Below are positions 27,968 through 48,841 of a stretch of DNA of 58,037 nt, one piece after another. Under the pieces are notes generated by a model. The model did not search any database, had not been told where the DNA came from, and saw only the letters and a program-made list of their open reading frames with translations. A program made the translations under genes and the position numbers. The stretch lies in IMG/VR virus record IMGVR_UViG_3300025941_000030, positions 1 through 58,037 of that record, one strand, 5' to 3'. Positions within the stretch are counted from its first letter, which is position 1, and every line of letters starts with the position of its first letter. This DNA is from a virus.

Positions 27968-28443
27968 ACCACGAACATCCACTATTCCGCAAGGTAGAAC
28001 ATGGTTTGTGGGTCTGGCTGACATTGAGGTTGAACCACCCCCTACGACGTGGGTGTAGGTGTCAATGTCCCCCTGGGCCAAGGTATCCCCGACGGTAACA
28101 GCGAGGGTGGTCAGGGCGGGGGGACAATGCGGGTCGATCAATGCGAGGCGAGGACCATGTCAAATAAATGGCGAATCGTTACAAAGTTGACATGGATCAG
28201 GATGAGTCTAGTTCATGTCGGAAATTTGACATGGTCGATAGGGAAGGGGTACAGTATGGCATTGTAACTCTGTCGTGTAAACCGTGCAAGGTACACGGCA
28301 GGCGGACCTGGGGATCGGGCAAACGGGGCGTGGCACCTGGATCAGGCGCTTGGCACGGTGCGTGCATTGCTTTCCTGAGCAGTTGCAAGCCGATCAACGC
28401 GAGCACGCGTCGGCGAATCAGTGCAGGGAAGGAGGTGAACGAT
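27968..28443. promoter_or_regulatory. Divergent control region between late and early blocks
   Basis: No convincing gene occupies these 476 bases. The core 28155-28255 carries three copies of a TTGACATGG word: inverted at 28155-28165 (CCATGTCAAAT), direct at 28187-28195, and direct at 28224-28234 (ATTTGACATGG). The words are at once -35-like boxes and a possible operator family. An early leader of about 180 bases follows, ending in the GGAAGGAGGTGA site of the first early gene. Confidence 0.55.
28226..28255 (+). promoter_or_regulatory. Candidate early promoter
   Basis: TTGACA at 28226-28231 and TACAGT at 28250-28255 with an 18-base spacer form a plausible sigma70-like promoter reading into the early block. 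Its -35 box lies inside one of the repeated TTGACATGG words. Confidence 0.5.
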
Positions 28444-30811: not shown

Positions 30812-31069
30812 ATGGCACCGTTCAACATGAACGACTTGTCTTCCCACAGCGCTGGCGTGCTTCGCATCAACGGCGAAGTGGTCAACGTGCCCGAGGGGGC
30901 CAACGTTATCGATCTGCTGCGTACAGAGACGCGGCGGCGTGGCATCACGACCTTTTCCGCTTTCGTGAACGGGGACGAGCTGAATGACTTGAGCGAGATC
31001 AGCGACTCCTTGTGCGAAGGGAAGGTGGTCGAGGTGCGGACGTACGCGAAGCCGGGCGCGAGCCTGTAA
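30812..31069 (+). CDS. Ubiquitin-like (ThiS/MoaD-type) beta-grasp modifier (85 aa)
   Basis: AAGGAGGTGA precedes ATG 30812. The order of elements is that of a beta-grasp: strand VLRINGEVVNVPEGANV, helix IDLLRTETRRRG, strand FSAFVNGDEL, and the final LCEGKVVEVRTYAKPG strand ahead of a short tail. Pattern 'iNGe...vpeGa.v.dLL...g...fVNG.e' is typical of ThiS-like proteins. The end is Tyr-Ala-Lys-Pro-Gly82-Ala-Ser-Leu, so a free C-terminal Gly would need removal of three residues, a job the JAMM protease gene downstream could do. It opens a four-gene conjugation cassette. Confidence 0.75.
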   Translation: MAPFNMNDLSSHSAGVLRINGEVVNVPEGANVIDLLRTETRRRGITTFSAFVNGDELNDLSEISDSLCEGKVVEVRTYAKPGASL

Positions 31070-31300
31070 GCTTCGCGTGCGGTCCCCACGAAGGGACGCC
31101 TAGCGCACGGGGCTGGCGAGCGCGGGATTGAAAGCGAAGGGGGTAGCCGGGAGTACGTTCCAGTGCTCTGCGGCTACCCACGAGCCTCCAGCGATGCGAC
31201 AGGGGCATGTTTTGACCCACGCACGGCCACAACGTTGGCCGGCGAGTGTGAACACATGCACAGTTTTTGGGCACCACGCCCACGAGAGGAGGTGATCGTA
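31070..31300 (+). other. Structured spacer between modifier and E2-like genes
   Basis: A 231-base gap with two strong hairpins. The first is CGTGCGGTCCC (31076-31086) pairing with GGGAC (31093-31097) and CGCACG (31104-31109) around a 6-base bulge. The second is GGGTAGCCG (31141-31149) with CGGCTACCC (31171-31179), extended inside by GAGTAC/GTGCTC and a six-base loop. No U-tract follows either, so stabilisation or differential expression of the modifier message is more likely than termination. Confidence 0.5.
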
Positions 31301-31936
31301 TTGGACATGCAAGAAGTCATGTACCCCGAGCTGGTCAGGCTCAATCAGGCGCTCGAACAGGGCCGTAACACGCACATCATCTGCGCCGAACGCCTGACCG
31401 CCGCGCGCCAGGGCATGGTACCCATCGCGTCCATTCCCACCGTGCCGGTCATCTTCGACCGGGCCGACCGTTATTTCAAACACCTGCTCATTGCCCAACT
31501 CACACTCAACAAGCTGGAGCAGTGGGTCGAACCGGAACGCGCAGCGGGGCCGACCGTGGCGTTCACGGTCAACCCAGCCTACGTGCCCCCGCCAATCGTC
31601 ATGGGCATCTTGTGGGGTAAGCCGTACGTCAACCTGTACCCGCTGCCCGGCATCACGCCCGACAACTGGGGCCACCTCTACCCACGCTTCCACTACTCCG
31701 GCACCAACATCTGCATCGGCGAGCAGTTCAAGATCGGCGAGCAGACGGACCCACAAGCCGAGCTGCCGAAGCTGGTCGAGCTGCTGAGCTGGGTCAACTT
31801 GACCAACAGTTACATCCCGCTCAGCGGGGCAGCCGCTCTCGGGGGCGTCTGGCCCCATTGGGCAGGCGCCTTGACCAAGGCGTTGAAAGGGCAGAAGCAA
31901 GGTGTGCTCGTGCCGATCAAGCGTTTGTCAGTGTAA
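31301..31936 (+). CDS. E2-like ubiquitin-conjugating protein (211 aa)
   Basis: AGGAGGTGA is 5 bases before TTG 31301. After an N-terminal helical region, residues of about 85-170 follow the order of E2 folds: VNPAYVPPPIVMGILWGKPY, the NLYPLPGITPD strand/turn, and RFHYSGTNICIGEQF. The last matches the E2 active-site pattern 'HpN..SGt.CL' and points to Cys138 as the thioester residue. A helix (LPKLVELLSWVNLTNSYIPL) follows as in E2s. Prokaryotic E2-like proteins of PRTRC, Bil and CBASS cassettes have comparable size. Neighbours: modifier upstream, E1-like and JAMM genes downstream. Confidence 0.7.
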   Translation: MDMQEVMYPELVRLNQALEQGRNTHIICAERLTAARQGMVPIASIPTVPVIFDRADRYFKHLLIAQLTLNKLEQWVEPERAAGPTVAFTVNPAYVPPPIVMGILWGKPYVNLYPLPGITPDNWGHLYPRFHYSGTNICIGEQFKIGEQTDPQAELPKLVELLSWVNLTNSYIPLSGAAALGGVWPHWAGALTKALKGQKQGVLVPIKRLSV

Positions 31937-31970
31937 CGACACGTCACAACGAGAAAGGAGGTGAGAACAC

Positions 31971-32864
31971 ATGAGCGATAACCGAAACCTGAAAGTCGCC
32001 ATCTGCGGTGTAGGTGGCGTAGGGAGCTGGGCAGCGGAAACGCTGGCCAAGGCAGCGCGCGGACAGGAGGGGTTGATCAGCAAGATTGGCCTCTTTGACC
32101 CAGACGTACTCGAACAGAAAAATCTCGCGCGCATGCCGACCGTGTCACCCGACTGGGTCGGGCATCCGAAAGTGGATCTGATCAGGAGGTTGATCCAGGG
32201 TACCGTGGCGAACGTCGAACGGCGCCAGATCAAGGTCGACGCCAGCAACATCGACATGATCCTCTTCGACTACGACATCGTCATCTGTTGCTCCGACGAT
32301 GTGGAGAACCAACGGCTGGTCAAGCTCTGGTGCGACCGAAACCGCAGCAAAGTCTACCAGCGCGCCGGCTACGACGGCGACAACATCAACGTCTGCCGCG
32401 CCTTGCCAATGACCTTCGATGTGGAGGAGGAAAAGGCGGACGCGGGGTATCACGGGCAGCCGGAAGTGTACCAGGCCATGTTGGCAGGCTGCTTGGCCGT
32501 GTACTCGGTACTCAAGAATACGGTCACGGTAATGGGTGAGGTGAAGAAGATCGGGTGCTTGGATGCCACGCATGTGCCCGAGAGTGTGCGAGAGGCGATC
32601 GTGGCGAGCGTGCCGAGGCAGATCGTGAGCGCCGAGGCGGAGGACTGGGAAGAGATAGCGAGCAATCACGGCTGGCACGACAGCGACAACTGCAACCACG
32701 ACGAATGTTATCCCAGCTTCTCAGAGCAAGTCAGCAACAACCCAGGCAACGCGTACGATACCCTGCGCGGCTACCACGACCGCTCCCACGTCGCGCGCTC
32801 GCGCACGGACGACGACTGCCCGTACTGCCAGCTGGCAACCGTAGCCGCAGCCGAAGACGAGTAA
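31971..32864 (+). CDS. E1-like ThiF-family adenylating enzyme (297 aa)
   Basis: GAAAGGAGGTGA precedes ATG 31971. The N-terminal Rossmann motif VAICGVGGVGSW (GxGGxG at 13-18), LFDPDVLEQKNLARM (41-55), a Lys in GHPKVDLIRRL and ICCSDDVENQRLV (105-117) form the adenylation site of E1/ThiF/MoeB proteins. A candidate catalytic Cys is 196 (KKIGCLDATHVPES). The C-terminal quarter has Cys/His pairs (DNCNHDEC, DDCPYC) that may bind zinc. It should activate the C-terminus of the beta-grasp protein with ATP and hand it to the E2-like protein. Confidence 0.88.
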   Translation: MSDNRNLKVAICGVGGVGSWAAETLAKAARGQEGLISKIGLFDPDVLEQKNLARMPTVSPDWVGHPKVDLIRRLIQGTVANVERRQIKVDASNIDMILFDYDIVICCSDDVENQRLVKLWCDRNRSKVYQRAGYDGDNINVCRALPMTFDVEEEKADAGYHGQPEVYQAMLAGCLAVYSVLKNTVTVMGEVKKIGCLDATHVPESVREAIVASVPRQIVSAEAEDWEEIASNHGWHDSDNCNHDECYPSFSEQVSNNPGNAYDTLRGYHDRSHVARSRTDDDCPYCQLATVAAAEDE

Positions 32865-32897
32865 CCCCACGCAGCAAACGAAAGGAGCCCCACGCCT

Positions 32898-33878
32898 ATG
32901 CCCCACTTCAAATTTGACGACGTCAAGGTGTGCCACAAGTGCGACCACCTGGACGCGCAAGCCAAGCCTAAGCTCACCTGGCCCCCCGATCTGTGGGACG
33001 CCTGGCGCACGATCACGCGCGTGAACATGGACCTGGAAGTCCTGGCCCTCTTTCGCGTGGACAAGGACAACCTGGTCACGGAGCTGGAAGTACCTGAACA
33101 GGAGGTCGAACAGGCTGCGTGTAAAGTGCTCAAGCAAGACGGCCACTGGGACGGCATGATCCACTCGCACCATAACATGGGCGCGTTCATGTCGGGCGAC
33201 GACAAGGCCACGCTCATGCCGAACTATCGGTTTAGCATGGTCACGAACCACAAAGGCGAAGTGCTCACGTTCGAGAAGATCGACCTGCCGTGTGGGGGGA
33301 TTGGGTTCAAGGAGGTCGAGACACTGGTCCAGCTGCGACCCGAGGCAGCTGAGCTGGTCGCGCTGGTCAAGGAGCGGGCACGCAGGCCAGTACCCAAGCA
33401 GACGAGCGTGGTCTACGGGGGCTACGCGGGGAACTACGGCACCCACTGGACGCCTGCCGGAGCACAAGCCCCAAAAGCCAACGGCGCCAACGGAAACGGA
33501 AACGGCGCCGGCAAGAGCGAAAGCAAAGGCGAACAACAAAGCATCGGGTTTCGCGGGGGCAATAGTGCGCGCCGTGATGACTCGGGCAAAGCGTTGGTGG
33601 TAAGGGGTGACGATGGCGTGTACCGCTCGACCGACCCCACCGACGACTACGACCCTTACTCAGCTTATGAGACCGACCCGCGCTTTGACCAGCTGCCCAA
33701 AGGCGAAGCGTGGGGCTGCGAGGAATGCCACATCCACTGGGACAGCTGGAAAGCCGCCCCGTACGACTGCTGGTTCTGTCACAAGCGCATCCAAGTCGTC
33801 ACCATCGACGACGGCGAGACGTGGTACGACGCGCAGGAACTGGGCCGGCTCATCTGCGAAGACGTGAGCGTGGGCTAG
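32898..33878 (+). CDS. JAB/JAMM isopeptidase-like protein with zinc ribbon (326 aa)
   Basis: AAAGGAG precedes ATG 32898. The MPN core has Glu47 (LEVLALFRV) and a full JAMM motif: His89-Ser-His91, seven residues, Ser99, two residues, Asp102 (HSHHNMGAFMSGDD). The sequence ends with a Gly/Asn-rich linker (about 190-235) and a C-terminal zinc ribbon (CEECHIHW...CWFCHKR). JAMM proteases trim ubiquitin-like precursors and remove conjugated modifiers. The first part also holds CHKC at 12-15. It completes a modifier/E2/E1/protease set. Confidence 0.88.
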   Translation: MPHFKFDDVKVCHKCDHLDAQAKPKLTWPPDLWDAWRTITRVNMDLEVLALFRVDKDNLVTELEVPEQEVEQAACKVLKQDGHWDGMIHSHHNMGAFMSGDDKATLMPNYRFSMVTNHKGEVLTFEKIDLPCGGIGFKEVETLVQLRPEAAELVALVKERARRPVPKQTSVVYGGYAGNYGTHWTPAGAQAPKANGANGNGNGAGKSESKGEQQSIGFRGGNSARRDDSGKALVVRGDDGVYRSTDPTDDYDPYSAYETDPRFDQLPKGEAWGCEECHIHWDSWKAAPYDCWFCHKRIQVVTIDDGETWYDAQELGRLICEDVSVG

Positions 33879-38664: not shown

Positions 38665-38885
38665 GCATGAGCAAGAAAGACTTCATTGCCTTGGCCGACA
38701 CACTACGCACACTACAACCATCGCCGTTTAGTGGCGACAGTGTTGGAAACGCGTATCAGTTTGATTGCTACGTAAACGCGCTCGCCGACTTCTGCGCCGC
38801 CCAGAACCCGCGCTTCAACCGCGCGCGTTGGCTAGGGTACATCAACGGCACCTGTGGACCAAACGGAGGAACACCCAAAACATGA
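38661..38885 (+). CDS. Small phage protein of a recurrent type (74 aa)
   Basis: MSMSKKDFIALADTLRTLQP followed by FDCYVNALADFCAAQNPRFN is a pattern shared by many short phage proteins of unknown role ('F.alAd.l......lad.c...NprFd..rW..Yi'). The stop overlaps the helicase start. Confidence 0.68.
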   Translation: MSMSKKDFIALADTLRTLQPSPFSGDSVGNAYQFDCYVNALADFCAAQNPRFNRARWLGYINGTCGPNGGTPKT

Positions 38886-40345
38886 CCCCATCCAAATATC
38901 AGCTCGACATCTACGAAGCCGCAGCGCGTGGCGACAAGCCGATCGCGGTCAAGGCAGTAGCAGGAGCGGGCAAGAGCCACGTCATCAAAGAAGTTGTCCG
39001 TGCTGCCTCCGGCCCCCGCCTCATCACCGCCTTCAACAAGCACATCGCCGACCACCTCAAGGGCCAATTCACCGACCGCGACGTCCGCGTCAGTACCATC
39101 CACAGCATGGGCTACGGCGCCCTGGCCGAAGCCTGTTCAACCAAGCTCAAGCTCGACGACGAGAAAGGGTACAAGCTGATCCGAGCGTACCTGAACGACT
39201 ACCCCTCCACCTGGGCCAACGCCGGCTTCGACTCAGCCTACGACTGCGTACCCGCGCTCCGTGAACTGTACGAGTTCGCGCGCCTGAGCCTGGTCAGCCC
39301 GCACGCACAGGACATGTTCATTGAAGCAGCCAGCGCGTACGACCTGACCTGCACGCCGGCCCTGGTTGAAGCGCTGCCCACCCTGCTCAAGCGCAACGCG
39401 AAGCTGGCCGAAGATGATGGACAGATCGATTTCACTGACATGATCCACCTGCCCTGCCGCTGGGACTTACAAGTCACCAAGTACCCGCTCGTGTTCGTGG
39501 ACGAGGTACAGGACTTGAACCCATGCCAGCTCGCGCTTGTGCTCAAGGCGCGGGCGAAGGGTGCAGGTGGGATGTTCGTCGGCGACCCAGCCCAGTCGAT
39601 CATGCAGTTCGCCTACGCCGGCCTTGACTCCTTTAACGAAGCCCGCATCGCAGTCGACGCGCAGGTGCTGCCCCTGTCCATCTGTTACAGGTGCCCGACT
39701 AGCCACATCAAGCTCGCGCAGGAGCTGGTGCCAGAGATTGAGGCGAGGGAGGATGCACCGGAAGGGTCAGTATACGGCGGCACCTCGCGCGCCATGTCCG
39801 CGTTACTCAAGGACCAGCTGTTCGACTCGACCATGATCCTCTGCCGCAACACCGCCCCACTCATCGCCACCTGCCTGTCCCTGATCCGCGCCGGCATCCC
39901 TGCCCATGTGAAGGGCCGCGACATTGGACGCGACCTGGTCACGACTATCCGCGCCGCGAGCAAGGGCAACATCGCCGCACTCGACGATGACCTGACCACC
40001 TGGCAACACGACCAGGAAGAACGGCTACGTGCGACCCAGGCGCCCAAGGGCAAGTACGCCGCATTACAGGACCGTGTCGATGGGGCACTCGCTGCGGCAG
40101 CCGGTGTACGCGCGGCCTCCGTGCCCGACCTGCTCGCCCAGATTCAAACGCTGTTTGCGGACGGGGCGAACGGAGTCACCTTGAGTACAGTGCACCGAGC
40201 AAAGGGGCTGGAGGCTGATCGCGTGTTTATCATCCGACCTGACTTGCTCACGCGCGATACGCAGAGCGAGGCGAATGTGGAGTACGTAGCAAAAACGAGA
40301 AGCCGTTCTATTCTTGGCTTCGTCGAAGACGCCGAAAATCTGTGA
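38882..40345 (+). CDS. SF1 DNA helicase, UvrD/Rep/PcrA-like (487 aa)
   Basis: Walker A AVAGAGKSH (26-33), motif Ia FNKHIADHL, motif Ic TIHSMGY, Walker B VFVDEVQDL (204-212), motif III GDPAQSIMQFAYAG, motif IV-like CRNTAPL, and motif V TVHRAKGLEADRVF near residue 440 are all present in order. It is shorter than UvrD (about 720 aa) because domains 1B and 2B are reduced, as in many phage SF1B enzymes. ATG 38882 overlaps the preceding stop. The protein should unwind DNA 3' to 5' during replication or recombination. It leads the replication block. Confidence 0.88.
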   Translation: MTPSKYQLDIYEAAARGDKPIAVKAVAGAGKSHVIKEVVRAASGPRLITAFNKHIADHLKGQFTDRDVRVSTIHSMGYGALAEACSTKLKLDDEKGYKLIRAYLNDYPSTWANAGFDSAYDCVPALRELYEFARLSLVSPHAQDMFIEAASAYDLTCTPALVEALPTLLKRNAKLAEDDGQIDFTDMIHLPCRWDLQVTKYPLVFVDEVQDLNPCQLALVLKARAKGAGGMFVGDPAQSIMQFAYAGLDSFNEARIAVDAQVLPLSICYRCPTSHIKLAQELVPEIEAREDAPEGSVYGGTSRAMSALLKDQLFDSTMILCRNTAPLIATCLSLIRAGIPAHVKGRDIGRDLVTTIRAASKGNIAALDDDLTTWQHDQEERLRATQAPKGKYAALQDRVDGALAAAAGVRAASVPDLLAQIQTLFADGANGVTLSTVHRAKGLEADRVFIIRPDLLTRDTQSEANVEYVAKTRSRSILGFVEDAENL

Positions 40346-40352
40346 ACGCCGC

Positions 40353-40381
40353 TTGACACCCCTGTCACGACGGTGTACATA
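40353..40381 (+). promoter_or_regulatory. Promoter-like element with dyad before the RHH gene
   Basis: TTGACA (40353-40358), a 17-base spacer and TACATA (40376-40381). A dyad GTGTA-CA-TACAC at about 40374-40385 overlaps the -10 box, a natural operator for the ribbon-helix-helix protein encoded just downstream. Predicted transcription would start within a few bases of ATG 40391. Confidence 0.45.
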
Positions 40382-40390
40382 CACGTCTCC

Positions 40391-40591
40391 ATGACCCGCC
40401 TACGCCTCGACCGCGTCATCCAAATGCGCGTGACCCACAAGCAGCTCACCCACCTGCGCGCCGCCGCCAAATGCGTAGGCTTACCCCTCACCACCTGGCT
40501 CCGTGTCACAGCTACCATGACGGCGTCGGAGGTTCTGTTGAACAAGAAGGACACCCATGAACGGAACGACACCCGACAGGCTCGCACATGA
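40391..40591 (+). CDS. Ribbon-helix-helix-like regulator (66 aa)
   Basis: ATG 40391 (two in-frame residues earlier exist but lie in the promoter). The beta strand LDRVIQMRVTHKQLTHL and the helices AAAKCVGLPLTTWLRVTATM follow the RHH/Arc-MetJ pattern, including the 'A...g.....Wlr' second helix. No Shine-Dalgarno site is seen, and the putative transcript start is nearly at the ATG, so translation may be leaderless. The end overlaps the nuclease gene. Possibly autoregulatory. Confidence 0.58.
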   Translation: MTRLRLDRVIQMRVTHKQLTHLRAAAKCVGLPLTTWLRVTATMTASEVLLNKKDTHERNDTRQART

Positions 40592-41606
40592 TAATGTGCG
40601 CCTGATCCTCGAAACCTACATCGACAAACACAACCCCGAGACCAGCTACCCCTGGTTCACGGACCCGAAGATGGTGGAGGTGGGGGTAGCGGCAGACCTT
40701 TATGACGCGCCGAAGAACGAGTGTTTATGTGGCCACACGCATAAGTCGCACAGAGACGATGTGTTTGGCGAACATAATGAAGGCTCGTGTACTTTTTGCC
40801 AATGTGACGCGTACCAGAACAAGGTCGTCCACGTCGGCGTCCTCGACATCCTCGGCACCTCCCGCTCCACCAACGACCTATGCCCCGTCGACCACAAGAC
40901 TACCGGCCAGCTCAACGCGCGCTTCGTCCACCAGTACGAAATGGACAGCCAGCTGTCTGGTTACATGTGGCAAGCGTCCCAACTCATGCGCAAGCCCTGC
41001 CACGTCGCGTTTATCAACGCGATCGAGCTAGGCGTCATCCCCTCGTCCAACCGCAAGTGCCCTGCCCACGGCGTCGAGTACGCCGAGTGCGGACCCGAGC
41101 ACGTGAAGTTCCAGGTCATCGGCCCGATCGAACGCACTGATCGGCAGATCGAGGAATGGCGTGAGGGCGCGATTGTGCTCGCGCTCAAGTACCGCCGCCT
41201 GCTCACGCACACGCACAAGTCCATTCACAAGGTCCGCATGGAGGGCACGTTCAACGGCGGCTGTGCCTACTGTGAGTTCCGCGAGTGGTGTATTGGAGAC
41301 CGGCAGCCGAAGCAGGTGGAGAAGATGTTCATACAGCGTGTGTGGGCACCGTGGGAGCGCGTGCCGAACGTGGTCAAGAAGCCGGACCCGCGCGTGCTTT
41401 ACGTGGACAACAGCACGCTCAAGGCAGTCGCGTCGTGCAGCACACAGGCGCTCATGCGGTACGGGCTCGGCTGGTCCAGTGCCGAGCAAAGTGGGCCGCT
41501 CAACGCCGGCACCGCCGTGCACGCCGGGCTCGAGCGCTGGTTCAAGGGTGGCACCACATCACAAGCACTCGACGCATTTGACAAAGCATTTGTGGAGGAC
41601 GAATGA
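40557..41606 (+). CDS. PD-(D/E)XK nuclease, RecB/Cas4-like, apparently circularly permuted (349 aa)
   Basis: AAGGAC precedes ATG 40557. The catalytic core is near the N-terminus: Glu41 (MVEVGV), Asp97 (GVLDILG), Asp112-His-Lys114 (PVDHKTT) and Gln132-x3-Tyr136 (QLSGY). A zinc-like insert C56xCGHx4H with C78, C81 and C83 lies between the first two. GGCAYCEFREWC ends the core. Residues 280-349 (VDNSTLKAVASCSTQALMR, LNAGTAVHAGLERWF, His322) look like the segment that normally stands at the very start of RecB-type nucleases. Its natural continuation is the 'rLahdNvrlIl..yi' found at the N-terminus here. Genes for an SF1 helicase and a Sak4-like ATPase flank it. Confidence 0.8.
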   Translation: MNGTTPDRLAHDNVRLILETYIDKHNPETSYPWFTDPKMVEVGVAADLYDAPKNECLCGHTHKSHRDDVFGEHNEGSCTFCQCDAYQNKVVHVGVLDILGTSRSTNDLCPVDHKTTGQLNARFVHQYEMDSQLSGYMWQASQLMRKPCHVAFINAIELGVIPSSNRKCPAHGVEYAECGPEHVKFQVIGPIERTDRQIEEWREGAIVLALKYRRLLTHTHKSIHKVRMEGTFNGGCAYCEFREWCIGDRQPKQVEKMFIQRVWAPWERVPNVVKKPDPRVLYVDNSTLKAVASCSTQALMRYGLGWSSAEQSGPLNAGTAVHAGLERWFKGGTTSQALDAFDKAFVEDE

Positions 41607-42445
41607 AACGCCCCGAGATACACGCAGTAGTCTACGGATTCCCTGGCAGTTACAAAAGTACCTTTGCTTCTACCTTCCCCACCCCCATCTACGTCTGCAA
41701 CTTTGACGGTCGCTCCAAAGCCGGCCCGTTCCTGCGCATGGGTGACAAGGTAGTCAACGGCGAATCGGATAAGCTCGGCGTCCCCTTACAGCGCGTGTAC
41801 GACGGCAAGACCCTCGTCGCCGAGATTCACCACTACCAAGACCCTGACCCCGAGAAGCCCGATGCGTTCGATCTGTTCAGGCAGGAGCAGCAGGAGTTCA
41901 ACCCGTCTAAGTGGGGCACGTGGGTGCTCGACAGTGTGACCGCCGCCGAGCTAGCCGCGCGCCTCGAACAACAGTTCAACATCAACCCCAACGTCCGCGA
42001 CGGCAGGCAATGGTTCGCAGGTGCCACCGACCAGCTCGAACGCCAGCTCGTCCGGCGCGCGACCAGCTACGAGTGCAACGTCGTGGTCATCTGCCACATC
42101 ACCGAGGAGTTTGTGGATGTGCCGGCGAGCAAGGAAGGTCCGGCCAAGCGCGTGGACAAGCGCGTGGAGTTCGGTGAGCGCGTGTCGTCAGATGGGGAGA
42201 CTGTGCGACAGCAACTGGTCCGGTCCATCTCCGCACCAGGGCGCCTGTCCAAACGCCACACCCTGATCAGCCAGTACGGCGAGTGCTACCGCGCGTACAC
42301 GCTGTTCAAGGACGGCAAGCGTAGCTGGTGGTTGCAGACTGAGGCTGATGAGGAATGGATTGCGAACACGCAGATACCGGCCCCTGATCCTTGCCTACCT
42401 GACTACGACAAGTTGTGGGCACGCGCCGACAAGACCACAAGATAA
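41603..42445 (+). CDS. RecA-like AAA ATPase, Sak4-type (280 aa)
   Basis: ATG 41603 overlaps the nuclease stop. Walker A GFPGSYKST (12-20), Walker B-like TWVLDSVTAAEL and a conserved VVVICHITEEF strand that corresponds to the sensor region of RecA cores. Such short RecA relatives (Sak4 family) in phages act with ssDNA-binding proteins in strand annealing and recombination. A ssDNA-binding-like protein is encoded 820 bases downstream. Confidence 0.78.
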   Translation: MKRPEIHAVVYGFPGSYKSTFASTFPTPIYVCNFDGRSKAGPFLRMGDKVVNGESDKLGVPLQRVYDGKTLVAEIHHYQDPDPEKPDAFDLFRQEQQEFNPSKWGTWVLDSVTAAELAARLEQQFNINPNVRDGRQWFAGATDQLERQLVRRATSYECNVVVICHITEEFVDVPASKEGPAKRVDKRVEFGERVSSDGETVRQQLVRSISAPGRLSKRHTLISQYGECYRAYTLFKDGKRSWWLQTEADEEWIANTQIPAPDPCLPDYDKLWARADKTTR

Positions 42446-42491
42446 AGCACCTTGACTGACCGGGCCAGCTCGGCCTAAGAAGGTCATTCAC

Positions 42492-42755
42492 ATGCGCCGG
42501 TACAGATGGGTCGAAGAGTTACTTGCTAGTGGGCACAAGATCACGATCCTACCAGGAGGACGAACGTACATGGGCGAACACCCGGCAATACAAAAAGTAC
42601 GCGAAGCATTGGTTGAAACCAAGCTCGACGCGGCGGCTATCCTGCGCGAGCTGATTCTTTCGTGTGGTATGGAAGCCGACGACTTGGGTTCCAGTGCATT
42701 CATCCCATACGAAGCAGCGCTCAAGATAGTCATCGCTGCACGAACACCATTTTGA
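42492..42755 (+). CDS. Hypothetical protein (87 aa)
   Basis: GAAGGTC lies before ATG 42492. N-terminal WVEELLASGHKITILPGGRT and a helical region (IQKVREALVETKLDAAAIL) show no recognisable family. Situated between the Sak4-like gene and a small basic gene. Confidence 0.58.
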   Translation: MRRYRWVEELLASGHKITILPGGRTYMGEHPAIQKVREALVETKLDAAAILRELILSCGMEADDLGSSAFIPYEAALKIVIAARTPF

Positions 42756-42769
42756 AAGGAGGTGACCAA

Positions 42770-42985
42770 GTGAAGACCGTATCCATCACCGACACACTCG
42801 CCACCGTGGCCGACAAGGCCGCGCTCGGCGAAGCCGTGCTCGCACTCGTACGCGACACGGGCTTGCTCAAGGTTCGCAAGCGGCGCGCACGCGCAGCCGT
42901 GGACAGCGCGCCGAAGCGCAAGCGTAACCGCGCACGCACGTTCAATGGACGTGGCGAGGCCAACGCACTGTCCGCCGACGAGTAA
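42770..42985 (+). CDS. Small basic protein, GTG start (71 aa)
   Basis: GAAAGGAGGTGA stands 4 bases before GTG 42770. An N-terminal helix (TLATVADKAALGEAVLALVR) is followed by a very basic tail (KVRKRRARAAVDSAPKRKRN), consistent with nucleic-acid binding. It lies just before the tRNA-like gene. Confidence 0.62.
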   Translation: MKTVSITDTLATVADKAALGEAVLALVRDTGLLKVRKRRARAAVDSAPKRKRNRARTFNGRGEANALSADE

Positions 42986-42996
42986 CACGAACCATG

Positions 42997-43063
42997 TGTG
43001 CAGTAGCTCAGTTGGTAGAGCGCGATAGCGTCGAGGTCGTGGGTTCGAGCCCCACCTGCACAC
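42997..43063 (+). tRNA. tRNA-like gene with abnormal anticodon arm
   Basis: The acceptor stem TGTGCAG/CTGCACA (7 bp), D-arm GCTC-AGTTGGTA-GAGC and T-arm GTGGG-TTCGAGC-CCCAC are perfect. Between the D-arm and the T-arm only 17 bases (GCGATAGCGTCGAGGTC) are present. If AGGTC is the variable loop, the anticodon arm has 12 bases in place of 18 and can form only CGA/TCG. Using a full anticodon stem instead leaves no variable loop and puts GTC (Asp) at the anticodon position with C at position 33. No CCA is encoded. It is either a decayed tRNA or a tRNA mimic. Confidence 0.6.
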
Positions 43064-43265
43064 GCTACCACCCAGGCCAGACCCGGCCCGTCACCGGGTT
43101 CAAAGAACTGAGGCTGACCGGTGACGCCGGAAACTACCAAGTTGCGGGTATCCCGCACGGTTGTTGTGACTCCTTGGCTCAGGCCCCACCACCCGCACCC
43201 TACTGTGCGTGACCAACCGCAGCTGCCGAGTAGGCCGTAGCTGCACACACGAAAGGAACACGAGT
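43064..43265 (+). ncRNA. Structured region after the tRNA-like gene
   Basis: A 202-base gap without a gene. ACCCGG (43081-43086) can pair with CCGGGT (43094-43099), or CGTCACCGG (43089-43097) with CCGGTGACG (43118-43126). The two pairings exclude each other. TGCGGG-TAT-CCCGCA (43143-43157) and GCAGCT/AGCTGC near 43217-43242 add further stems before the ssDNA-binding-like gene. A switching leader is possible; no known riboswitch consensus was recognised. Confidence 0.4.
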
Positions 43266-43859
43266 ATGGCGAAGAAAGGCCCGGCTGGCTTCAGCTGGAA
43301 GGAAACCATTCCCGAGTCGAACCTCTACGATGCCGGGTACTACAACATGGACCTGGAGACCGTCGAGGTCGACCACACCAAGAGCGGGCTCAAGCAGTAC
43401 CGCGCCACATGCCGCATCACCGAGCCCAAGGACGTTCGCGGGCAGATGTACTTTGCCCGGTTCGTGGTCGGCAACGAAGATGACCCCGATGCGGGCGACC
43501 CGAACACCTGGAAGGGCTTCGGCGCTCAGCGCTTGCGCAGCTTCTTGGCCGCTGTCGGCGCCAAGGACGGTCACCCCGATGACATCTGGCCCGACCTCGA
43601 AGGCGAGTCCGTGTGCGCTCAGCTCGGCAAGCGAACGGACAACAAGAAGGGCAGCCCGTATGAGGGCCAGGAACAGCAGACTGACAAGTGGTTCAAGGTC
43701 GGTGACCGTGAGCCGGGCCTGATCGGTCAGGCGAGCACCGGTTCGAGCCGGCGCAAGCACGAGCCGGACGAGGACGAGGAACCCGCACCAGCACGCGGGC
43801 GCAAGCCGGCTGACGACGATGAAGATGAGGACGAAGCTCCTCGTCGGGCGCGTCGGTAG
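43266..43859 (+). CDS. Putative ssDNA-binding protein (197 aa)
   Basis: GAAAGGAACACGAGT precedes ATG 43266. A beta-rich N-terminal domain of about 140 residues (AGFSWKETIPESNLYDAGYY, KQYRATCRITEPKDVRGQMY) resembles the DUF669-like or OB-fold phage ssDNA-binding proteins. A low-complexity tail follows, rich in Asp/Glu (EPDEDEEPAPARGRKPADDD) and ending RRARR. The acidic tail would recruit partners such as the polymerase, though the basic final residues are unusual. Context between recombinase and polymerase genes agrees. Confidence 0.62.
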   Translation: MAKKGPAGFSWKETIPESNLYDAGYYNMDLETVEVDHTKSGLKQYRATCRITEPKDVRGQMYFARFVVGNEDDPDAGDPNTWKGFGAQRLRSFLAAVGAKDGHPDDIWPDLEGESVCAQLGKRTDNKKGSPYEGQEQQTDKWFKVGDREPGLIGQASTGSSRRKHEPDEDEEPAPARGRKPADDDEDEDEAPRRARR

Positions 43860-43871
43860 GTAATCAACCCC

Positions 43872-43950
43872 TTTCACGCCCCACGGTTCGAGCAAGCAGC
43901 TTTCCCCTTCGCTCTGCTTGCTTTGCCCCAGCCCGCCGTGGGGCGTGAAA
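43872..43950 (+). other. Long double hairpin after the ssDNA-binding-like gene
   Basis: A perfect 15-base inverted repeat TTTCACGCCCCACGG (43872-43886) / CCGTGGGGCGTGAAA (43936-43950) encloses a second perfect stem AGCAAGCAG (43891-43899) / CTGCTTGCT (43914-43922). No U-run follows. This very stable RNA would protect the 3' end of the upstream message, or it could be a DNA cruciform or protein site. Confidence 0.6.
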
Positions 43951-43975
43951 TAACCCACACAACAGGAGAATACCC

Positions 43976-44173
43976 ATGCCACTTTTTGAAGTAGCCATCA
44001 TCGAAACACCGACCAAGACCCAGGTGGACGCGGGTGAGGGCGAGCGACTTGTCCTTCCGCCGACCGCTATCGTCGCAGCCAACACACAAGCCGCGATTGC
44101 AAAGGCCGCGCGTGATGCCGGCGCCAACTTCGACGCGTCCCGCGCACAGGTACTTGTGCGCCCTTTCGTATAA
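43976..44173 (+). CDS. Small conserved-type phage protein (65 aa)
   Basis: AACAGGAGA precedes ATG 43976. MPLFEVAIIETPTKTQVDAG and LVLPPTAIVAANTQAAIAKA match a short phage protein type I recall from many genomes ('alfEVaIie.Pt..e...g..e.lv..p..vvA.....A'), function unknown. Confidence 0.7.
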   Translation: MPLFEVAIIETPTKTQVDAGEGERLVLPPTAIVAANTQAAIAKAARDAGANFDASRAQVLVRPFV

Positions 44174-44303
44174 GCCCAGTTGAACAGCGGTTCGGTATCG
44201 ACCCAGCAACTGGGCGTGACGTCAGTTTAGGCGCGCTCTTTAAACCAGAGTGGTTGAACAACGCGTCAATTGTATACCAAATGGGCATTAGCCCTAAGTA
44301 CAA
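44174..44303 (+). other. Intergenic spacer with hairpins
   Basis: GCCCAGTT (44174-44181) pairs perfectly with AACTGGGC (44208-44215) just after the stop codon. A small GGGC-ATTA-GCCC stem lies before the UDG/exonuclease gene. No U-run follows the first stem and no gene is apparent. Confidence 0.45.
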
Positions 44304-45383
44304 ATGACCCGCCGCGTGCCCTCCTACGGGCCACTTGATGCGAAGATCGTGATTATCGGCGAAGCGCCGGGGCGCCAGGAATGCCTCGTCGGGCGCCCAT
44401 TCATCGGCCCGTCCGGTCATCTGCTCGACAAGTGGCTGGACGGGGCCGGCCTACGGCGGCGGGACATCCGCACGATGAACGTCTTCGAGTACATGGCTCC
44501 AGGCTCGAACATAACCAAGGCCGACAAAGCCGAGGTCGAAGTATGGGCCGACAGCCTGCACACGCGCTTGCGTGAATTACAAGACCCGATCGTCCTCGTC
44601 CCTATGGGCAACATCGCCCTGCGCGCGGTGATGCGTAAGCCGTTGTGGAGTAACAAGTCACCTAAGATTGGGGACTGGCGTGGGTCGATACTGCGCTACG
44701 ACTTCAACACCATACTGCCCGACCCTGAACGCTGGTGTAAGGTCATCCCGACCTACCACCCTGCTGCCAGCTTCCGTGACAGCTCGCTTGGTAAACTGTG
44801 CCGAGCAGACTGGCACCGGATCGCGGGCGATAGCCAGTTCCGTGCGAGGCGATTACCGAAGTACATCCACCTTGTACCGCCTATCCACGACGACGACGTG
44901 ACCCGATACATTAACGAAGCATTAGACCCGTGTACGGTCATGGCGATCGACATTGAGACTAACCCATCCACGCGTGAGATACTGTGTGTGGGCTTCAGCT
45001 TTGACCCAGGCGAATCGCTCACGCTTCCGTGGCCCCAGTACCGTAAGATCATCCGTGTCCTATGTGAGTCGCCGTGTGTAAAGGTCGGCCAGAACTTCCT
45101 CTACGATCGCTACTGGCTACTCGTGCTCGGGGACATCGAAGTGCGTGGGGAGATACACGATCTGCTGTCCATGCACCATACGATCGACTCGACTTTGCCC
45201 CACGATCTAGCCACGATGGCAAGCCTCGACACGCGGCAGCCGTTTTGGAAACGTTCGCACAAGGATGAAGATTCTGACACTGCTGACAAGGAACCGTTTG
45301 AACGGTTGTGCATCTATAATGGGGTGGACTGTTGCGTGTCGAGGCAGCTGTTCGACGTGTATATGGAAAGGCTGCGAGCATGA
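44304..45383 (+). CDS. Uracil-DNA glycosylase / 3'-5' exonuclease fusion (359 aa)
   Basis: Residues 1-180 are a family 4/5-like UDG: GEAPGRQE (19-26), RPFIGPSGHLLDKWL, and TYHPAASFRD (His152) in the catalytic loop. Residues 205-359 are a DnaQ-like exonuclease: AIDIETN (Asp216, Glu218), GQNFLYD (Asp268), Asp286 and IYNGVD (Tyr338, Asp342), a DEDDy set. The family 4 Fe-S cysteines are not obvious, so the cluster may be lost. The exonuclease domain is missing from the polymerase gene that follows after one short gene, so together they would make a split polymerase A. The UDG could remove uracil near the fork. Confidence 0.82.
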   Translation: MTRRVPSYGPLDAKIVIIGEAPGRQECLVGRPFIGPSGHLLDKWLDGAGLRRRDIRTMNVFEYMAPGSNITKADKAEVEVWADSLHTRLRELQDPIVLVPMGNIALRAVMRKPLWSNKSPKIGDWRGSILRYDFNTILPDPERWCKVIPTYHPAASFRDSSLGKLCRADWHRIAGDSQFRARRLPKYIHLVPPIHDDDVTRYINEALDPCTVMAIDIETNPSTREILCVGFSFDPGESLTLPWPQYRKIIRVLCESPCVKVGQNFLYDRYWLLVLGDIEVRGEIHDLLSMHHTIDSTLPHDLATMASLDTRQPFWKRSHKDEDSDTADKEPFERLCIYNGVDCCVSRQLFDVYMERLRA

Positions 45384-45703
45384 TCCCCAACGACCAGTGG
45401 GGCCGTGAGCTTTGGCTCGCTGTCGCCATGCGTGCGCTCGATATGAAAGGCGACGAGTTGCAGCAGATATACATCGCAGACTGCCAACAAGCGCGTGATG
45501 GGCACTTTGCTAACGCGCGTGAGTACAAAGAGTTGTACGCGAACCTATGCGCCGAGCACGAGAGCTTCAAGGCGTACTATGCAGGCCATAAAGACCTTGT
45601 CGAAGCGTGCGACTGTTTGCATAGATGGCGTAGCGAATTGCTCAACAGCATAGAGAAGATCACCGACGAACTTTGGAAGTTGAAGCAGGACGCAGACGGA
45701 TGA
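45380..45703 (+). CDS. Hypothetical protein between exonuclease and polymerase (107 aa)
   Basis: ATGA overlaps at both ends tie it to the exonuclease and polymerase genes. Helical throughout (LWLAVAMRALDMKGDELQQI, LHRWRSELLNSIEKITDEL). It may bridge the two enzyme parts, but that is only inferred from the arrangement; no family recognised. Confidence 0.6.
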   Translation: MIPNDQWGRELWLAVAMRALDMKGDELQQIYIADCQQARDGHFANAREYKELYANLCAEHESFKAYYAGHKDLVEACDCLHRWRSELLNSIEKITDELWKLKQDADG

Positions 45704-47316
45704 GCAAGCTCGATCTGTATCTTAACCATTACGCTGCCCTCTCCGATCCTATGCTCGCCATGATGGATCACGGCATCCGTGTAGACCGCGCCAAGGCAGC
45801 AGAGAAACTTGCTGCTCTATCCGTCCGTTGCCGGGCTATCCAAGCCGAGCTAGCCGAACTGATCGGCGCGAACGATTGCGTGTGTGGACACAAGCGTGAG
45901 CAGCATGAGCAACTAGTCACCCCGTTTCTAAAGAAGGACGGGACAGTAGCGAAGCGGAAACCGAAGGTTACATGGCCGTGCGGTGAGAGCCATGTCAAAT
46001 GTATGTACGGGCGCATGTGCGTGGACTTCACCCCTCGCGTCCGTGCCCTGACCGGCTCAACCGACCTCTCCTCACAACGCATCGTTGACTACTGCTACAA
46101 CCACCTCGGCTTGCCTGCCCAGCGCCAGCGCGGCGAGGAATCCCTAACTGGCAACGAGGTCGCCCTGCGCAAGCTGCTGCTCAAGGCCCAGCACCAGGCA
46201 GAACACCCCATGCGCCGCCCCACGGAGAAGACTGCGCTGTGGAAGCGCGAGCCTGAGCTGGCCGTGCGTGTGCTCACACTGATCCTCGAACACCGTGAGA
46301 AGGCGAAGCTGGCCACGTACCTGGACCCGAGCAAAGTGGACCGCGATGGGCGCATGCGGTGTATGTATAAGGTCACGACTGAAAATGGCCGGCTCGCGTC
46401 CAAGTCCAACCCATTCGGTACCGGGATGAACTTGCAGAACATTCCGCGCGGGGATATGCGGGAGATATTTGTACCGGACGAGGGGTGCGTTTTTCTGGAG
46501 TTGGACTTCAGTGCTATCGAGGACCGCATCGTCAAGGTGCTCACCCAAGACCCCGAACTAATCCGTGAAGCACGCTTGCGCCCCGATATCTTTGACACCC
46601 ACGCCGTCGCAGCCAAACGAGCGTTTGCCCAGCTCCTCAACGTCCACCCTGACAACGTGGACGTAAAGGTCGAAGTCACGCCCGGCAACACGCGCAGGCA
46701 GATATTCAAACCCTTCAACCACGGCGGGAACTACGGTGCCTCGCCCGTGCGCGTGCAAGAGATGATGCTCAAGGACGGCATCCTGCTCCCGCTCGCACTG
46801 TGTACCAAGCTGCTCGACGCCGCTATCACTGCGCCCAAGCGCGCGTACCAACGCGAGACGCGCAAGCGTATCATGCGCGACCGGAAGCTGACTAACAGCT
46901 GGGGCCGGGAGTTGTCGTTTGAAGGGGAGCGACTGGACGACGCCACCTACCGGCGTGGCTACGCCTTCCGTGCAGCGAGTGAGAACGCGGATAACCTGAA
47001 CCAGCTCGGCCTGGTACCCGCGTATAAGTACATAATCAAACACCGTCTCAAAACGCGCATCAACTGCCAGGTCCACGACAGTTTACTGTTGTCTTGCCCG
47101 CCCGACGAAGTGTATGATGTCGCGCGGTTCGTGATCAAGAGCATGGAGACCCCGCGTGTGTATGAAGGTGTGGAGCTGGCCGTGCCCGTTGAGTTGAAAA
47201 TGGGCACGAGCTGGAAGTGTGAACGTGAGTGGAAGACCCTGCCCAGCCGCGCAGAGTTTGAGCGGGCCGCGTATGACCTCCTGAAAGGAAAACCCAATGC
47301 CGAGCGAGCTGCCTGA
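45700..47316 (+). CDS. polA: DNA polymerase A without exonuclease domain (538 aa)
   Basis: Polymerase motifs are present in order: TENGRLASKSNP...NLQNIPRG (227-251), motif A LELDFSAIEDR (Asp269), motif B RQIFKPFNHGGNYGAS (333-348) and motif C QVHDSLLL (His459, Asp460). The N-terminus (1-110) holds no exonuclease but a Cys/His cluster (Cys60-x-CysGly-His64-x4-His69, Cys94, Cys101, Cys107), akin to the insert in the RecB-like nuclease. Proofreading is supplied by the UDG/exonuclease gene upstream. Length fits polymerase-only family A forms. It should replicate the phage DNA. Confidence 0.9.
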   Translation: MSKLDLYLNHYAALSDPMLAMMDHGIRVDRAKAAEKLAALSVRCRAIQAELAELIGANDCVCGHKREQHEQLVTPFLKKDGTVAKRKPKVTWPCGESHVKCMYGRMCVDFTPRVRALTGSTDLSSQRIVDYCYNHLGLPAQRQRGEESLTGNEVALRKLLLKAQHQAEHPMRRPTEKTALWKREPELAVRVLTLILEHREKAKLATYLDPSKVDRDGRMRCMYKVTTENGRLASKSNPFGTGMNLQNIPRGDMREIFVPDEGCVFLELDFSAIEDRIVKVLTQDPELIREARLRPDIFDTHAVAAKRAFAQLLNVHPDNVDVKVEVTPGNTRRQIFKPFNHGGNYGASPVRVQEMMLKDGILLPLALCTKLLDAAITAPKRAYQRETRKRIMRDRKLTNSWGRELSFEGERLDDATYRRGYAFRAASENADNLNQLGLVPAYKYIIKHRLKTRINCQVHDSLLLSCPPDEVYDVARFVIKSMETPRVYEGVELAVPVELKMGTSWKCEREWKTLPSRAEFERAAYDLLKGKPNAERAA

Positions 47317-47518
47317 GTTCGACGCCTTCATCGCTGCCCTTCGCCCGCGCCTATACGTCGGCGCGCAAACCTACGGTGACGCCTCATTCGAGCGTGCGTT
47401 GCCGGAGACCGCAGACGAGATCATGCAAGAGTTGCTAGACGTTGCAGGCTGGGCTTGGATTGCTTGGGTCCGGCTCAAGCGTGTACGTGACCGGATCAAC
47501 GAGTTGGAGGGGGAGTGA
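47297..47518 (+). CDS. Hypothetical small protein (73 aa)
   Basis: GAAAGGAAA precedes ATG 47297, within the end of the polymerase gene. A pattern typical of small phage proteins: AALRPRLYVGAQTYGDASFE then EIMQELLDVAGWAWIAWVRL (a 'Ei.qEl.DvagWa.i.w.Rl' helix). It resembles the dATP/dGTP-pyrophosphohydrolase-like helix of MazG-related proteins only superficially. Stop overlaps the next start (TGATG). Confidence 0.68.
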   Translation: MPSELPEFDAFIAALRPRLYVGAQTYGDASFERALPETADEIMQELLDVAGWAWIAWVRLKRVRDRINELEGE

Positions 47519-47667
47519 TGGCAGATTTTCATGACCACGTGTGTAGTAAGTGCTGGACCGTCTGCGCGTGCGTAGGTTGGTCCTGCACCATACGCGACCA
47601 CGAATTCCTGTGCACCCAATGTCGCCGAGAGGAAGACGCCCGTGAGTCAGCACAACGGCAACGGTAA
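47518..47667 (+). CDS. Small zinc-finger protein (49 aa)
   Basis: ATG 47518 shares its A with the preceding stop. Cys-rich: VCSKCWTVCACVGWSC and LCTQCRREE give CxxC pairs and extra cysteines, so one or two zinc sites are possible. The end overlaps the next gene by 26 bases in another frame. Confidence 0.62.
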   Translation: MADFHDHVCSKCWTVCACVGWSCTIRDHEFLCTQCRREEDARESAQRQR

Positions 47668-48841
47668 GGCTGACGCTGACTTCCTGTCACTATTCCTAAG
47701 CGCCGCAGGCAAGTCGGAAATCCCGAAACCTTTTCTCGAATGGGCCGGTGTGTCCCTCGTCGCCGCCACCCTCAACGACCACGTCTGGTACGAGAAGTTC
47801 CCGGGCAAGAAGCTCTACCCCCAACTGTACGTATTCCTGCTCGGCCCCTCGGGCCTTGGCAAAGGCGAAGCGATCGACTTCGCCCTTCAATTCATCGACG
47901 AGGACGCCCCGCTGATCAACATCTGGGACGGCAAGGTGTCGGGTGAAGGGTTCGTAGATGACCTCGCCACGATCAGTACGGACGTCAGCCATGAAGGACG
48001 ACCAACCGCCCTATTGACCATGCCCGAGCTAGCTCAAGCAATCGGTAAGGGCCAACAAGCCGACGCGTTTGTGAAGCGAATGACTGGCTGGTACCCGCCC
48101 CCACGACGCCGTTACAAGGAACGCACACGTACGACCGGGGCAAACATCGACATGCCCAGCCCACTGGTCAACTGGCTCGTAGGCACGACCGTCGAGTGGA
48201 TGGTAGACAGCATTACCAAGGACGCGATCGAGTCAGGGTTCTTTGCCCGCGTCTTCGCCATCAACTGCCCCTACAACCTGAACAACCGCGTGCCGGACCC
48301 GACAGTTGAGGAGCAATACCCGGCCCTATGCAAAGCAATCCGCACCCAGCTCCGTGACATCGCTGACCTGACCGGCTCGTTCCGCCTCACCAAACAAGCC
48401 CGTGCGATCAGGCACAAGTGGTACCTGAGCCGCCCAGCACCGGAGGACACGCGCTTGTTGCCCAGCTGGCGCCGACAGGACGACCTGATCCTCAAACTGT
48501 GCATGGTGTTCAGCGCCATGAGCGGGCGTGGGGACATGCGGATCACATCACACGAGATTACCCGCGCGCAGCAATACGTGCTCCGTGCGCATCACTCACT
48601 CCCACGCCTGCTATCTGTGGCCGGCCAAACACCCATGACCAACGGCCTGAACACCGTGGCCAGCTTCATCAAGATCGCCGGGCGCATCCCGCACAGCCCT
48701 CTGCTCAAGAAGCTCGCGCACCGAGGCATTCACGCGCAGGAAGCAAGCCTGCACTTGCTCGCGCTCATGCAGCAGCGGGACATTGAGTGCGAGCGGTTGA
48801 AAGGCGGGGCGCGGGTGTATACGTGGGCAGGGGCGAACTAG
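47642..48841 (+). CDS. DUF3987-like primase/helicase-type ATPase (399 aa)
   Basis: GAGAGGAAG precedes GTG 47642. The Walker A motif GPSGLGKGE (68-76) follows the usual DUF3987 opening (FLEWAGVSLVAATLNDHVWY). Walker B-like ALLTMPELAQAI and the RVFAINCPYNL strand come next. C-terminal helices (THEITRAQQYVLR-type) resemble the winged-helix end of the family. Members accompany phage replication proteins and are thought to be helicase/primase-associated. It is the last plus-strand gene; its stop codon overlaps the convergent tail fibre gene. Confidence 0.78.
   Translation: MSQHNGNGKADADFLSLFLSAAGKSEIPKPFLEWAGVSLVAATLNDHVWYEKFPGKKLYPQLYVFLLGPSGLGKGEAIDFALQFIDEDAPLINIWDGKVSGEGFVDDLATISTDVSHEGRPTALLTMPELAQAIGKGQQADAFVKRMTGWYPPPRRRYKERTRTTGANIDMPSPLVNWLVGTTVEWMVDSITKDAIESGFFARVFAINCPYNLNNRVPDPTVEEQYPALCKAIRTQLRDIADLTGSFRLTKQARAIRHKWYLSRPAPEDTRLLPSWRRQDDLILKLCMVFSAMSGRGDMRITSHEITRAQQYVLRAHHSLPRLLSVAGQTPMTNGLNTVASFIKIAGRIPHSPLLKKLAHRGIHAQEASLHLLALMQQRDIECERLKGGARVYTWAGAN

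What the first reader, a model, noticed from the sequence alone, without database searches (positions are those of the whole stretch)
30812..33878. Phage-encoded four-part ubiquitin-like conjugation cassette
Four consecutive plus-strand genes look like modifier (ThiS-like beta-grasp, 85 aa), E2-like protein with SGTNIC at Cys138, E1/ThiF adenylating enzyme with GVGGVG and DPDxLExxNLAR, and a JAMM protease with a perfect HxHx7Sx2D. Bacterial sets of this kind (PRTRC, Bil and CBASS Cap2/Cap3) are host or plasmid systems, several of them anti-phage. Here a lytic-type phage carries a full set in its early block. It may modify host proteins, tag virion parts, or counter a host conjugation system. 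The modifier ends Gly-Ala-Ser-Leu, so the JAMM enzyme may mature it.
Basis: partly seen in the sequence, partly recalled or inferred. Interest (0 to 1): 0.95.

Follow-up and report, generated by a model that had tools for sequence, protein, structure and literature searches.

The report
Phage-encoded ubiquitin-like conjugation gene set
A bacterial virus carries four neighbouring genes that look like a complete miniature ubiquitin-tagging machine (tag, activator, carrier and remover), and dozens of other phages carry the same set, mostly beside their DNA-copying genes, so phages may tag proteins of their own replication machinery.

Summary
At 30812-33878 (+) four genes encode a beta-grasp modifier (AlphaFold pLDDT 77; conserved Gly82 followed by ASL), a 211-aa protein with an E2-like Cys138 motif, a ThiF/E1 enzyme (Pfam 1.3e-20) and a JAMM protease with all five catalytic residues. 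The E2 is the weak part: library profiles found nothing and AlphaFold failed (pLDDT 50). Against 34 phage E2-like proteins it was the best real window ORF, Cys138 on their active-site Cys, but only at E 0.012, with 2 of 200 shuffles higher. The implied rarity of phage carriage is wrong: 29 other distinct loci (27 from IMG/VR) hold the same modifier family, nearly all in the order modifier-E2-E1-JAMM; JAMM-E1 pairs occur in many more phages, including cultured crAss001. In 21 of 30 modifier loci the sliding-clamp gene lies directly upstream, after both clamp-loader genes; several others, the window included, have Sak4, exonuclease or helicase genes downstream. I favour a reversible conjugation pathway acting on replication or recombination proteins (cascade about 0.75, target about 0.35). 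No conjugation was shown. By the tests available it is not PRTRC, Bil or CBASS.

The parts
30812..31069 (+). Ubiquitin-like modifier (85 aa, beta-grasp, Gly82 followed by ASL)
   Evidence: AlphaFold pLDDT 77, beta-beta-alpha-beta-beta-beta; PDB fold matches headed by ThiS, SUMO, a molybdopterin-synthase subunit; homologous modifiers in 29 other loci
31301..31936 (+). Probable E2-like (UBC) protein, candidate catalytic Cys138
   Evidence: Position between modifier and E1 as in relatives; hhalign E 0.012 in register with the E2 Cys, best of the real window ORFs tested but below 2 of 200 shuffles; E2 cores of relatives match Pfam UQ_con at best 0.0012; AlphaFold of this protein uninformative
31971..32864 (+). 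E1-like ThiF-fold adenylating enzyme with Cys/His-containing C-terminal extension
   Evidence: Pfam ThiF 1.3e-20; GVGGVG and DPDVLEQKNLAR; tblastn 2e-17, 37% identity to L125
32898..33878 (+). JAMM/JAB isopeptidase with Cys-rich C-terminal tail
   Evidence: Glu47, His89, His91, Ser99, Asp102 aligned with the phage JAB family; Prok-JAB 0.0077, below its cut-off
38765..48841 (+). Downstream replication-recombination block: helicase, exonuclease, Sak4-like, SSB-like, DNA polymerase (two ORFs), primase
   Evidence: PHROG matches

Best explanation
The four genes encode a phage-borne, reversible ubiquitin-like conjugation pathway, probably used early in infection. The JAMM enzyme trims ASL to expose Gly82; the E1 adenylates Gly82 with ATP; the modifier passes to Cys138 of the E2-like protein and then to a lysine of a target; JAMM removes it again. 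The most likely targets are phage replication or recombination proteins. Shown: the gene set, the fold or family of modifier, E1 and JAMM, and the conserved order and replication-linked context in relatives. Inferred: E2 chemistry, maturation, conjugation and target.
For: Modifier fold and Gly conserved in 28 of 29; E1; JAMM catalytic residues; E2 position and weak in-register match, UQ_con similarity in relatives. Gene order is kept in 22 clamp-linked loci while identity falls to 41% for E1 and 24% for the modifier. Sliding clamp directly upstream of the modifier in 21 of 30 loci, after both clamp-loader genes; Sak4 and a DnaB-type helicase-primase downstream in L013, Sak4 in L148, exonuclease in L006 and L085; primase and uracil-DNA glycosylase beside the crAss001 pair. 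No rhodanese or other sulfur-metabolism family appeared among the matches in the window.
Against: The window E2 is not recognised by profile searches and was not modelled. Early phage genes cluster anyway, and the clamp linkage could be plain descent of one operon, so context is weak evidence for the target. The window itself has no detectable clamp or clamp loader and its replication genes start about 5 kb downstream. No biochemical data.
Confidence: 0.6

Rival explanations
1. Counter-defence: the set intercepts or reverses host conjugation systems (Bil, CBASS), or tags a host immune protein.
For: Such host systems exist (PMC10097602; PMC11354881). JAMM and E1 could act on foreign modifiers. 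The set lies on the strand of the replication genes, ahead of them.
Against: A complete own modifier and E2 are not needed for mere reversal; sets recur in many phages with replication neighbours.
Confidence: 0.2
2. Virion tagging or assembly: the modifier is attached to structural proteins, or acts like the lambda tail-assembly I and K proteins.
For: Lambdoid TAPI/TAPK pair a Ub-like domain with a JAB domain (PMC1779556).
Against: The set lies in the plus-strand replication block, not by head or tail genes; TAPI/TAPK sets as described have no E1 or E2.
Confidence: 0.12
3. Sulfur carrier pathway: a ThiS-ThiF-like pair with a JAMM hydrolase supplies sulfur for a cofactor, tRNA or DNA modification, and the 211-aa protein is an unrelated sulfur acceptor.
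For: The modifier's best fold match is ThiS; the E1 scores best on ThiF and MoeB models.
Against: No sulfur-metabolism gene among the matches seen in the window; relatives have an E2-like gene in this position, some with UQ_con similarity.
Confidence: 0.15

Closest known systems
PRTRC-type operon (Iyer et al. 2006, Table 1 row 6d, PMC1779556; equating 6d with PRTRC is from memory)
   Same: Single small beta-grasp modifier with conserved C-terminal Gly, separate E2-like, E1-like and JAB genes
   Different: Window proteins miss the NCBIfam PRTRC cut-offs (ThiF 26 of 144.75 bits, the others no match); on a phage; the alpha-helical partner of 6d was not identified
Bil / BilABCD (PMC11354881)
   Same: Modifier, E2, JAB and E1 as four genes
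   Different: By that review BilA has two Ub domains, BilD two adenylation domains plus a Cys domain, and BilB a CEHH motif; the window has one Ub domain, a 297-aa E1 and no such His pattern after Cys138; Bil is a host defence
CBASS Cap2/Cap3 (PMC10097602)
   Same: E1, E2 and JAB chemistry; the window E1 matches Cap2 chains weakly
   Different: Cap2 joins E2 and E1 in one protein (PADLOC E1-E2 models) and the cyclase is the conjugated partner; here the genes are separate and there is a dedicated modifier
crAss001 gp75-gp79 region (NC_049977)
   Same: E1 (gp76) next to JAB (gp77) in a replication block, with a possible beta-grasp domain in gp79 (by eye)
   Different: Order JAB then E1, both longer; no E2 shown; annotated as thiamine biosynthesis and metalloprotease
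Lambda tail assembly proteins I and K (PMC1779556)
   Same: Phage-borne Ub-like domain plus JAB
   Different: No E1 or E2; tail operon

Membership tests
Ubiquitin-like beta-grasp modifier | beta-grasp fold | tested here: met
   (Foldseek probability 1.00, best E 2.6e-3, TM about 0.5; top 50 almost all beta-grasp)
Ubiquitin-like beta-grasp modifier | conserved Gly at or near the C-terminus | tested here: met
   28 of 29 sequences
E1/ThiF superfamily | Rossmann adenylation domain, GxGGxG, DxDxxExxNLxR | tested here: met
JAMM isopeptidase | catalytic Glu and HxHx7SxxD | tested here: met
E2/UBC superfamily | UBC fold | tested here: inconclusive
   AlphaFold pLDDT 50; no Pfam hit
E2/UBC superfamily | active-site Cys motif aligned with E2-like proteins | tested here: inconclusive
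   hhalign E 0.012 in register, 2 of 200 shuffles higher; HMM of active-site segments did not find it
PRTRC system | NCBIfam PRTRC models above cut-off | tested here: not met
   relatives L010 and L125 also below
Bil | two-domain BilA, and E1 with two adenylation domains plus a Cys domain (PMC11354881) | tested here: not met
   85-aa modifier, 297-aa E1; single-domain Bil variants, if any, not tested
CBASS type II | CD-NTase gene and fused E2-E1 Cap2 | tested here: not met
   E1 and E2 are separate genes; no CD-NTase among matches of the ORFs scanned
Conjugation pathway | covalent modifier-target conjugates | not testable with these tools
   needs biochemistry

The most novel reading that the evidence does not exclude
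Phages possess their own counterpart of SUMO/ubiquitin control of the replication clamp: a modifier cassette inherited together with clamp and clamp-loader genes that reversibly tags replisome or recombination proteins, the window being a clamp-less member of the group.
Probability: 0.3. Interest if true: 0.95.

Novelty: new variant of a known kind. Interest (0 to 1): 0.8.

Why it matters
Bacterial ubiquitin-like conjugation is known mainly from host immunity and from plasmids and chromosomes. A recurrent phage version tied to clamp and recombination genes would be a new functional setting, offers minimal one-domain cascades for study, and makes the question of what phages tag directly testable, possibly also in cultured crAss-like phages.

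Tried and rejected
Single-protein scans of IMG/VR for E1, JAB and E2 found no close relatives, so crAss homologues were used as a bridge. Window E2: no Pfam, PHROG, NCBIfam, PADLOC or PDB match; hhalign against 10 E2s failed; an active-site HMM failed; AlphaFold failed, perhaps from a noisy alignment of very distant sequences. Treating crAss gp78 as an E2 is not supported by the alignment. The modifier alignment could not be used as a scan query. An E1 tree was built but its display failed, so no tree is claimed. The genome scan returned mostly ordinary-looking MoeB/TcdA-type loci. Plasmid searches found nothing. Literature: nothing on full phage-encoded sets in the held open-access library; Chambers et al. 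(PMC11476048) and Burroughs et al. 2009 and 2012 were not held, so an earlier description cannot be excluded.

Full report
What is there. The four genes lie at the stated coordinates. The window is a 58,037-base IMG/VR virus record with head, portal, terminase and tail-type genes on the minus strand and helicase, exonuclease, Sak4-like, SSB-like, polymerase and primase genes on the plus strand. Its head protein is 29-41% identical to those of the phage records listed. A tyrosine-integrase model (PF00589) found nothing, so 'lytic-type' is reasonable, but a serine integrase or a missing genome end was not excluded.

Modifier. Alone it matches no Pfam family. phmmer links it to small ORFs in other phages (1.7e-6 for L005, 1.9e-5 for L096), each followed by an E2-like gene, an E1 and a JAB. 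A 29-row alignment gave an AlphaFold model with pLDDT 77, pTM 0.58 and beta-grasp order. Its PDB matches are headed by ThiS, SUMO, a molybdopterin-synthase subunit, TGS domains and ubiquitin (best E 2.6e-3, none below 1e-3). The C-terminal Gly is kept in 28 of 29; 16 end exactly on it and 12 carry one to five more residues, the window's ASL among them (counted).

E1 and JAMM. The E1 matches ThiF at 1.3e-20 and, far below their cut-offs, many ThiF, MoeB, PRTRC and E1-E2 models. The JAMM protein shows Glu47, His89, His91, Ser99 and Asp102.

E2. The 211-aa protein is the weak link. Its only Cys in such a motif is Cys138, in YPRFHYSGTNICIGE. It lies where relatives have E2-like proteins with HYH or HPN followed by C-L/W-G. 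Three of the 15 cores of alignment A7 match Pfam UQ_con, best 0.0012; the window protein is not one of them. Against a profile of 34 relatives the window protein scored 20.5 (E 0.012), with residues 131-171 aligned to the E2 active-site segment; it ranked third of 379 queries, below two of 200 shuffles and above every other window ORF tested. Two other comparisons were negative, and AlphaFold gave pLDDT 50. I call it probable, not shown.

Relatives. Scans with alignments bridged by crAss-phage sequences brought in well over 100 viral loci. Nearly all JAB loci have an E1 beside them; the scans started from conserved JAB and E1 motifs, so this is not a census. Thirty distinct modifier sequences score below 1e-6 (the window counted, as L001), nearly all in the order modifier-E2-E1-JAMM.

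Context. In L138 and L131 the two genes before the clamp-like gene match clamp-loader PHROGs (6e-56 and 1.4e-23; 8.4e-63 and 1.9e-16), and the gene next to the modifier matches a DNA polymerase processivity factor in L143 (4e-7), L087 (2.7e-5) and L128 (5e-4). Profiles built from these place the clamp 35-506 bases upstream of the modifier in 21 of 30 loci. Among 22 clamp-carrying loci, clamp identity runs from 22 to 87% and modifier identity from 24 to 79%, so the order has outlasted much divergence, though plain descent of an operon would also give this. Carriers without such a clamp have Sak4, a DnaB-type helicase-primase or an exonuclease nearby, as the window has 5-15 kb downstream. crAss001 has primase and uracil-DNA glycosylase close to its E1-JAB pair. 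This is the basis of the replication-target hypothesis, which remains an inference.

Shared Trp motif. In this group an acidic-Trp motif lies at the E2 C-terminus in 20 of 28 and at the modifier N-terminus in 15 of 29, against 2 of 462 and 13 of 462 other proteins (the motif was written after seeing the sequences). The window proteins lack it.

Known kinds. The set resembles row 6d of Iyer et al. 2006, reported there from bacteria; the phage cases that paper describes are the lambdoid and T1-like TAPI-TAPK genes. PRTRC membership fails by model cut-offs, and the window lacks the domain make-up given for Bil and the E2-E1 fusion of CBASS Cap2. I file it as a phage-borne new variant of prokaryotic ubiquitin-like conjugation.

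Noticed in passing
L005, L010, L083, L096, L131, L138 and others: Shared short acidic-Trp motif (for example DVWGS) at the E2 C-terminus, the modifier N-terminus and some JAB N-termini, far above background; possible docking peptide.
   Followed up: partly
window 44304-45383 and 45673-47316 (+): DNA polymerase split over two ORFs that match consecutive parts of phrog_17 (479-828, then 834-1246), about 290 bases apart.
   Followed up: no
window 25832-28141 (-): 769-aa Thr/Pro-rich protein with dockerin-like CCGDCDGDG segments, next to the strand switch.
   Followed up: no
L145 and L152, 5201-6190 and 6197-6943: Two tandem E2-like genes in one cassette.
   Followed up: no
L155, 658-6006: Clamp loader, clamp and full cassette on a 6.3 kb contig titled Thermoplasmata archaeon; virus, integrated element or misbinning not resolved.
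   Followed up: no
L002, 2895-5299 (crAss001 gp76 and gp77): E1-like and JAMM proteins of a cultured crAss phage are annotated as thiamine biosynthesis protein and metalloprotease domain protein.
   Followed up: partly
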